From the NCBI GenBank assembly GCA_943735955.1, contig OX030958.1:5168626-5232625 (forward strand): 64,000 nucleotides of DNA. Reading direction: 5' to 3'. The notes beneath the pieces were generated by a model, which saw nothing but the letters and a program-made list of their open reading frames with translations, made no database searches and was not told the DNA's origin. The position numbers and the translations under genes were made by a program. This DNA is from Piscicola geometra. Lineage: Eukaryota; Annelida; Clitellata; Hirudinida; Piscicolidae. Positions 18,200-64,000 of this stretch are shown here, piece after piece; position 1 is the first letter of the stretch, and every line of letters begins with the position of its first letter.

Positions 18200-18242
18200 A
18201 TGTTCGCCCTTTTCTCAACACTCTTTGCCATCACTTCCTATG
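18200..18242 (+). CDS. Surface-protein exon 1: signal peptide
   Basis: The ATG at 18200 opens MFALFSTLFAITSY, a short hydrophobic signal sequence, before a strong donor G|GTAAGT, phase 1. An acceptor at 18170-18171 (TTTATTTTAG) suggests the exon starts at 18172 with 5' UTR or with ten further in-frame codons (HPIAIYCSG before the Met). Joining to the lectin exon gives Val next. Confidence 0.65.

Positions 18243-64000: not shown

What the first reader, a model, noticed from the sequence alone, without database searches (positions are those of the whole stretch)
18200..64000. Unusual domain order: SUEL lectin, CUB, CCP, transmembrane helix
Ten exons scattered over 46 kb share one open frame, with every junction phase agreeing. 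They combine a rhamnose/galactose-binding SUEL domain with one CUB and one CCP module in a single-pass receptor. SUEL proteins I know (EVA-1, latrophilins, egg lectins) do not carry this set. It may be a lineage-specific adhesion or guidance receptor. The exons are seen in sequence; the novelty is judged from memory of families.
Basis: partly seen in the sequence, partly recalled or inferred. Interest (0 to 1): 0.8.

Follow-up and report, generated by a model that had tools for sequence, protein, structure and literature searches.

The report
Leech SUEL-CUB-CCP surface receptor family
A long split gene of the fish leech encodes a single-pass cell-surface protein that joins a SUEL lectin-type module to CUB-like and CCP-like modules; it belongs to a leech gene family, and because this copy lacks key sugar-binding residues it is probably a protein-recognition receptor rather than a lectin.

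Summary
The genome matches Piscicola geometra, the fish leech. Ten + strand exons (18200 to 65093, past the window end) join in one frame into 1,054 residues: putative signal peptide, SUEL, CUB-like module with a 191-residue insert, CCP-like module, one transmembrane helix, 500-residue Asn/Ser-rich tail. Including a 44-base micro-exon lifts SUEL from 30.3 to 47.4 bits (cut-off 31.4). A chromosome-7 paralogue carries SUEL-CUB-CCP-TM-tail within 3.9 kb, with the same phases at the four junctions downstream of SUEL and an equal 159-base CCP exon, which argues for one gene. It is no one-off: 30 of 58 CCP-type exons counted lie downstream of a SUEL exon, and Helobdella robusta has a relative. CUB is supported for the family, but in this gene only its N half is shown by sequence; CCP rests on cysteine/tryptophan pattern and a non-significant best hit to CSMD1. 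Two residues important for latrophilin-1 sugar binding are replaced, so sugar binding is unlikely. Seven paper searches listed no description of this architecture. Ligand and function (guidance, adhesion, immunity) are untested.

The parts
18200..18242 (+). Exon 1: start ATG and first part of a putative signal peptide; phase out 1. The true 5' end was not determined.
   Evidence: ATG with donor ATG|GTAAGT (5.9 bits); hydrophobic MFALFSTLFAITSY. Signal peptide judged by eye.
41090..41234 (+). Exon 2: end of putative signal peptide and first part of the SUEL domain (C1 to C3); phase 1 in, 2 out
   Evidence: CACAG acceptor, GA|GTACGT donor 1.8 bits; SUEL Pfam match together with exons 3-4
43850..43893 (+). 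Exon 3: 44-base micro-exon with SUEL C4 and C5; phase 2 in, 1 out
   Evidence: TTTTTCAG acceptor (0.6 bits), CAG|GTCAGT donor 5.4 bits; with it SUEL goes from 30.3 to 47.4 bits; phase-1 intron after CS-G shared with paralogue L049
45410..45523 (+). Exon 4: end of SUEL domain (C6 to C8); phase 1 in, 1 out
   Evidence: Pfam PF02140; own-genome protein search
49469..49620 (+). Exon 5: N half of the CUB-like domain (DCPWHLQKSNGQRWMLRVIDF); phase 1 in, 0 out
   Evidence: Profile of six paralogue N halves 18.8 bits, 0 of 5000 shuffles as good; TSG-6 CUB the best PDB match, E 1.1. The donor CTA|GTATTT is weak (-4.3 bits).
50693..51431 (+). Exon 6: CUB segment with a central Cys (GCSALMIVELDG) followed by a 191-residue polar insert (limits set by eye); phase 0 in, 1 out
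   Evidence: Longest ORF of the window, 248 aa from its ATG; composition
51634..51810 (+). Exon 7: putative C half of the CUB-like domain; phase 1 in, 1 out
   Evidence: Position before CCP, phase out and FxKF(E/K)G ending as in paralogue C7; profile score not significant, 300 of 5000 shuffles as good
58248..58406 (+). Exon 8: CCP/sushi-like module, 4 Cys, 159 bases; phase 1 in, 1 out
   Evidence: Profile of eight paralogue CCPs: 43.6 bits for the full model, best of 5000 shuffles 10.2; 159-base exon in the C7 paralogue; family profile (window included) best PDB match CSMD1 sushi, E 0.12. Acceptor weak (-1.5 bits).
61890..61977 (+). Exon 9: transmembrane helix and basic residues after it (CRKR, completed by exon 10); phase 1 in, 2 out
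   Evidence: Hydropathy 2.73 over 19 residues; same phases as the C7 TM exon. Donor weak (-4.9 bits).
63590..64000 (+). Exon 10: cytoplasmic tail, 500 residues, Asn/Ser rich; in the window to 64000, continues to the TGA ending at 65093 in L017
   Evidence: Acceptor weak (-4.5 bits).

Best explanation
The locus is one gene for a type I membrane receptor of a leech multigene family with the order signal peptide - SUEL - CUB-like - CCP-like - transmembrane helix - long Asn/Ser-rich tail. Shown by sequence: an open frame across ten exons, the SUEL domain, the transmembrane helix, paralogues with the same order, and replacement of two key sugar-binding residues. Inferred: the cysteine-rich ectodomain binds protein (or other non-rhamnose) ligands at the cell surface, the SUEL fold serving as a protein-binding module as PMC2430599 proposes for transmembrane receptors, with CUB and CCP as further binding or spacer modules; the CUB insert and the low-complexity tail change fast; YxxPhi motifs in the tail may drive endocytosis. 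Copy number, tandem arrays and divergence suggest a recognition repertoire (cell-cell, host or microbe recognition) more than a single conserved guidance receptor.
For: Frame and phases; SUEL 47.4 bits against a cut-off of 31.4, PDB relatives an L-rhamnose-binding lectin (1.6e-12) and latrophilins; C7 paralogue with SUEL, CUB, CCP, TM and tail in 3.9 kb and the same phases at the four junctions downstream of SUEL (BLASTP 1e-21 over SUEL plus CUB start and 6e-12 over CCP plus TM, single comparison); L049 CUB over the Pfam cut-off (23.1 against 21.4); a CUB profile without the window gene has cubilin as best PDB match, 5.5e-7; 15 of 27 counted CCP exons off chromosome 10 have a SUEL exon upstream on the same strand within 20 kb, against a random mean of 0.1 and a maximum of 2 in 2000 draws; Helobdella relative of the C7 paralogue, E 2.4e-21; Glu42 to Gln and Lys120 to Asn/His with the mutagenesis statement of PMC2430599 (passages).
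Against: No transcript or protein data. The CUB C half and the CCP class of this gene are below significance. Four splice sites are weak (exon 5 donor, exon 8 acceptor, exon 9 donor, exon 10 acceptor). The window CUB has two introns that the C7 CUB lacks, and its first cysteine is missing. Two structure predictions were of no use. The Lys120 comparison depends on the alignment, and 12 of 29 leech sequences show Lys in that column. Two protein searches with the window gene itself found no relative. Ligand and function are untested.
Confidence: 0.72

Rival explanations
1. Two neighbouring genes: a secreted SUEL lectin (exons 1-4) and a separate CUB/CCP/TM receptor (exons 5-10).
For: Introns of 1.5 to 23 kb part the first four exons from each other and 3.9 kb part exon 4 from exon 5; no transcripts.
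Against: The C7 paralogue has SUEL, CUB, CCP, TM and tail exons within 3.9 kb in one frame; the SUEL|CUB junction is phase 1 after C8 plus two codons in the window, C7 and L049; 30 of 58 counted CCP exons have a SUEL exon upstream on the same strand within 20 kb; a Helobdella protein model joins SUEL, CUB-like and the start of a CCP-like segment.
Confidence: 0.07
2. A true carbohydrate-binding receptor: the SUEL domain binds galactose, rhamnose or another glycan, for example of microbes or fish mucus.
For: SUEL fold with all eight cysteines; the closest solved relative is an L-rhamnose-binding lectin; two of the 28 other leech SUEL sequences aligned show both Glu and Lys.
Against: The Glu42 equivalent is Gln and the Lys120 equivalent Asn or His in this gene; substitutions there dramatically reduced or abolished binding in latrophilin-1 (PMC2430599, passages read).
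Confidence: 0.17
3. A decaying family copy: the exons are real but the gene no longer makes a working receptor.
For: Very long introns, four weak splice sites, long SUEL branch, large insert and asparagine runs.
Against: No stop or frameshift in 1,054 codons; an 810-base open stretch in AT-rich DNA; all eight SUEL and four CCP cysteines kept.
Confidence: 0.1

Closest known systems
EVA-1 / EVA1C (C21orf63), Slit co-receptor
   Same: Single-pass receptor with extracellular SUEL/RBL; sugar-binding residues replaced (PMC2430599 passages)
   Different: EVA-1 has two RBL domains in its ectodomain; here one SUEL plus CUB-like and CCP-like modules and a 500-residue tail
Latrophilins (ADGRL)
   Same: SUEL domain with significant sequence match
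   Different: No olfactomedin, hormone-receptor, GPS or seven-helix family listed by Pfam for this protein; one TM helix
Rhamnose-binding lectins (for example 5h4s)
   Same: SUEL fold and cysteine pattern; best PDB match, 1.6e-12
   Different: 5h4s has three SUEL stretches; this protein has one, is membrane-anchored, and lacks the key Glu and Lys
CUB/CCP receptors such as CSMD, SEZ6, Neto, LEV-10/SOL (architectures recalled)
   Same: CUB or CCP modules on single-pass proteins; CUB profile hits Neto2 (E 0.031), CCP profile best hit CSMD1 (E 0.12)
   Different: None of them carries SUEL, as far as I recall
Helobdella robusta HELRODRAFT_191274 (P0001)
   Same: SUEL, CUB-like and start of a CCP-like segment in the same order (read by eye); E 2.4e-21 to the C7 paralogue, 80% covered; 29% identity to the window gene over SUEL and CUB start
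   Different: Pfam sees SUEL only, at 31.0 bits just under the 31.4 cut-off; the model ends in low-complexity sequence without a clear TM; in the tree it nests with other family members, not next to the window gene

Membership tests
SUEL_Lectin PF02140 | Pfam score over cut-off along the full profile | tested here: met
   47.4 bits, profile 1-80 of 80, cut-off 31.4
SUEL_Lectin PF02140 | Glu42 and Lys120 sugar-contacting residues (latrophilin-1 numbering); not needed for the fold | tested here: not met
   Gln; and Asn in the pairwise alignment or His in the multiple one
CUB PF00431 | Pfam score over cut-off in this gene | tested here: not met
   No hit; paralogue L049 passes, 23.1 against 21.4; C7 CUB has no hit
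CUB PF00431 | N-half motif C-x-W with GQ and DF | tested here: met
   18.8 bits to a profile of six paralogues, best of 5000 shuffles 10.4
CUB PF00431 | C half in register | tested here: inconclusive
   1.5 bits, 300 of 5000 shuffles as good; position and ending as in C7
CUB PF00431 | Four cysteines in two disulphides | tested here: not met
   The first cysteine is missing; candidates for the other three are present
CCP/Sushi PF00084 | Four cysteines with a Trp between C3 and C4 | tested here: met
   Invariant in 11 of 11 family sequences aligned, window included; the module, about 50 residues, is shorter than I recall as typical
CCP/Sushi PF00084 | Profile score | tested here: inconclusive
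   No Pfam hit; family profile best PDB match is the CSMD1 sushi domain, E 0.12
EVA-1 | Two RBL/SUEL domains | tested here: not met
   One SUEL stretch in the model
Latrophilin | Olfactomedin, hormone-receptor, GPS and 7TM domains | tested here: not met
   None listed by Pfam for the 1,042-residue (superseded) and 567-residue models
Leech SUEL-CUB-CCP-TM family (defined here) | Module order and junction phases 1 (SUEL|CUB), 1 (CUB|CCP), 1 (CCP|TM), 2 (TM|tail) | tested here: met
   Window and C7 agree at all four

The most novel reading that the evidence does not exclude
Leeches carry a large, fast-diversifying family of SUEL-CUB-CCP single-pass receptors, some in tandem arrays and some with many SUEL repeats before one CCP, in which the lectin fold has largely been turned from sugar binding to protein recognition: a repertoire for cell, host or microbe recognition not described before.
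Probability: 0.35. Interest if true: 0.75.

Novelty: new variant of a known kind. Interest (0 to 1): 0.52.

Why it matters
PMC2430599 (2008, passages read) names three classes of transmembrane SUEL receptors: latrophilin, PKD1-like and EVA-1. A further build, with CUB and CCP modules and about thirty counted SUEL-CCP pairs in one leech genome, would show how this fold was re-used as a receptor module. The tandem arrays give a natural set of variants with which to test what SUEL domains bind when they do not bind rhamnose. It also flags leech genes that general profile searches can miss, because here the SUEL is split by a micro-exon and the CUB by a large insert.

Tried and rejected
Rejected models: the first nine-exon model (used, its SUEL) had the wrong exon 2 donor (41242) and lacked exon 3; replaced. 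Further phase-fitting exons in the large gaps gave nothing convincing apart from the place of exon 3.

Led nowhere: two structure predictions without alignments (CCP exon, mean pLDDT 53.5; Helobdella P0001, 32.0), so no fold search was run. Two protein searches with the window gene (with the superseded model, with the final one) found no relative; the third, with the C7 paralogue, found one. The database holds nr/UniRef entries, but candidates must share exact words and length, so absence elsewhere is not shown. Drosophila CG32432, which I half-remembered as SUEL-CUB-CCP, is called the sol-1 orthologue in PMC13123972 (passages) and was dropped; PMC2949867 (passages) gave nothing on its domains. 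The architecture paper searches listed few or mostly unrelated papers. Pfam on six other window ORFs gave nothing over cut-off. A CUB profile made from mixed partial sequences gave only 11.3 bits for the window model (best of 5000 shuffles 10.7) and was badly aligned; it was replaced by separate halves.

The searches themselves score only the best candidates, so the counts are lower bounds. One search started from 35 hits of at least 80 residues; identical ones were collapsed to 27, plus the window and C7, 29 in all.

Full report
Where it is. The window lies on contig C4 (12,335,861 bases) of a genome of 171,024,195 bases. [quoted passage not shown]). I take this as the source; identity rests on these sizes.

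The gene. Ten + strand exons, 18200-18242, 41090-41234, 43850-43893, 45410-45523, 49469-49620, 50693-51431, 51634-51810, 58248-58406, 61890-61977 and 63590-65093, join with outgoing phases 1,2,1,1,0,1,1,1,2 into 1,054 codons and a stop. The last exon leaves the window at 64000. Exon 6 holds the longest ORF of the window. Because I picked splice sites to fit, I looked for outside tests. A 44-base exon with a strong donor (5.4 bits) supplies the missing middle, including cysteines 4 and 5; with it, and with the exon 2 donor moved eight bases, the domain scores 47.4 bits over profile positions 1-80. Four other splice sites are weak by a generic matrix.

The modules. SUEL: 47.4 bits against a cut-off of 31.4; PDB matches are an L-rhamnose-binding lectin (1.6e-12) and latrophilins. 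CUB: exon 5 reads DCPWHLQKSNGQRWMLRVIDF; against a profile of six paralogue N halves it scores 18.8 bits, better than all of 5000 shuffles (best 10.4). The putative C half in exon 7 does not stand out (1.5 bits, 300 of 5000 shuffles as good). Between them lie a central cysteine segment and a 191-residue polar insert whose limits I set by eye. CCP: exon 8 has the four cysteines and the tryptophan that are invariant in 11 of 11 family sequences; against a profile of eight paralogues the full model scores 43.6 bits, best of 5000 shuffles 10.2. That shows kinship within the family; kinship to known CCP domains is weaker, the best PDB match of the family profile being the CSMD1 sushi domain at E 0.12, with no Pfam hit. 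TM helix: hydropathy 2.73 over 19 residues, followed by CRKR. The tail has 500 residues, 20% Asn and 13.6% Ser, with three YxxPhi motifs. The signal peptide is judged by eye.

One gene or two. The main comparison is a compact paralogue at C7:5066796-5070662 (locus L041 positions 2797-6663, from the start of its SUEL to its stop; its first exons were not sought). Its SUEL (two exons), CUB (one exon), CCP, TM and tail exons join in one frame. Phases at SUEL|CUB, CUB|CCP, CCP|TM and TM|tail are 1, 1, 1, 2 in both genes; the CCP exon is 159 bases in both, the TM exon 88 and 85. There are differences: the window CUB is cut by two introns that C7 lacks, and the intron before SUEL cysteine 4 is phase 2 in the window and phase 1 in C7, one base apart. 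The window's intron after CS-G (phase 1) recurs at the same place in paralogue L049 on C12. BLASTP between the window protein and C7 gives 1e-21 over SUEL and the CUB start and 6e-12 over CCP plus TM. A split into two genes would have to be particular to this locus.

The family. Pfam SUEL finds 109 places in this genome, none in the window, whose SUEL is split. Searches with the window's SUEL and with CCP exons give pairs: 30 of 58 CCP exons counted have a SUEL exon upstream on the same strand within 20 kb. Off chromosome 10 it is 15 of 27, where random placement gives a mean of 0.1 and at most 2 in 2000 draws (lengths of several contigs taken from the rounded table of PMC11134150). On chromosome 10 it is 15 of 31; 14 of the 16 unpaired ones lie at 4.65-4.70 Mb, where locus L051 shows SUEL split over exons beside four CCP exons. 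CUB was not checked locus by locus: a search with the L049 CUB matches 13 places. The L049 CUB passes the Pfam cut-off (23.1 against 21.4); the C7 CUB does not match Pfam. A CUB profile made without the window gene (three Piscicola loci and Helobdella P0001, loop inserts left out) lists 14 PDB rows at E up to 10, best cubilin 5.5e-7, the next 0.0079; all 14 are proteins that carry CUB domains as far as I know them. So CUB is supported for the family and follows for the window gene by kinship, position and its N half.

Outside Piscicola. Two protein searches with the window gene found nothing. With the C7 paralogue one hit appeared: Helobdella robusta HELRODRAFT_191274 (425 residues, E 2.4e-21, 28% identity, 80% of the query), whose sequence reads by eye as SUEL, CUB-like and the start of a CCP-like segment, though Pfam sees SUEL only and just under its cut-off (31.0 against 31.4). 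In a tree of 33 SUEL sequences it falls among the Piscicola members rather than outside them, with moderate support (88/84); the window gene sits on a long branch of its own, and the tree warns that long branches are unsure. The tree holds no latrophilin or EVA-1 that I identified in the leech itself. So the family is probably older than the split between Piscicolidae and Glossiphoniidae (lineages). Whether it exists outside leeches is open.

Sugar binding. PMC2430599 (passages read) reports that the substitutions made at Glu42 and Lys120 in latrophilin-1 dramatically reduced or abolished carbohydrate binding, and argues that SUEL domains in transmembrane receptors bind non-carbohydrate ligands. 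In the window SUEL the first is Gln; the second is Asn in the pairwise alignment or His in the multiple one. Of 29 leech sequences, window included, two show Glu at the first place (three start after it), twelve show Lys in the second column, and two show both; some of these sequences are near-identical copies and the second column is not surely aligned. A receptor that recognises proteins is therefore the likelier reading for this gene, but it is inferred.

What is not shown. No expression, no ligand, no partner, no structure: two predictions without alignments were of no use. Guidance, adhesion, immunity and host interaction are all open. The copy number and arrays make a recognition repertoire a more natural guess than a single guidance receptor.

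Literature. Six searches for SUEL with CUB, sushi or related names and one for SUEL in leeches and annelids listed no description of this architecture. Only the listings were seen, with passages read in PMC9334734, PMC3390340, PMC2430599, PMC5117596, PMC8878817 and PMC7191736. One search found 103 papers, of which 40 were listed. In the passages of the Olavius and rotifer papers SUEL lectins are counted, but no SUEL-CUB-CCP protein is named; [quoted passage not shown] Domain databases on the web could not be consulted, and P0001 shows that family members already sit in public databases as hypothetical proteins.

Noticed in passing
Chromosome 10 of the same genome, C10:5050470-5066626 (+) and C10:5082359-5068542 (-); also C10:4883192-4894504 (+): Long runs of SUEL matches (18 in the first run) on one strand followed by a single CCP exon; the first two runs face each other. 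Possible giant multi-SUEL receptors.
   Followed up: partly
L042 (C10:5036500-5046400): Family genes repeat head to tail about every 2.1 kb: four SUEL and four CCP exons in turn, and a TM exon read by eye in the first unit.
   Followed up: partly
L045 positions 2915-5530 (C5): A paralogue has an 872-residue ORF that ends, by eye, in a CUB C-half-like segment, i.e. an even larger insert in the CUB loop than in the window gene.
   Followed up: no
window 34639-34752 (+), 40372-40485 (+), 44124-44330 (-): Three copies of an interspersed repeat in the introns (translated PIMKGPRFKCNQCP...), on both strands.
   Followed up: no
L018 about 1212-4790, right of the window: An open frame of about 1,190 residues that looks by eye like a non-LTR retrotransposon ORF.
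   Followed up: no
window 55142-55426: Long CA/TG microsatellite in an intron.
   Followed up: no
C3:7617230-7635147 of the same genome: Dense array of CUB matches on one strand, perhaps a cubilin gene.
   Followed up: no
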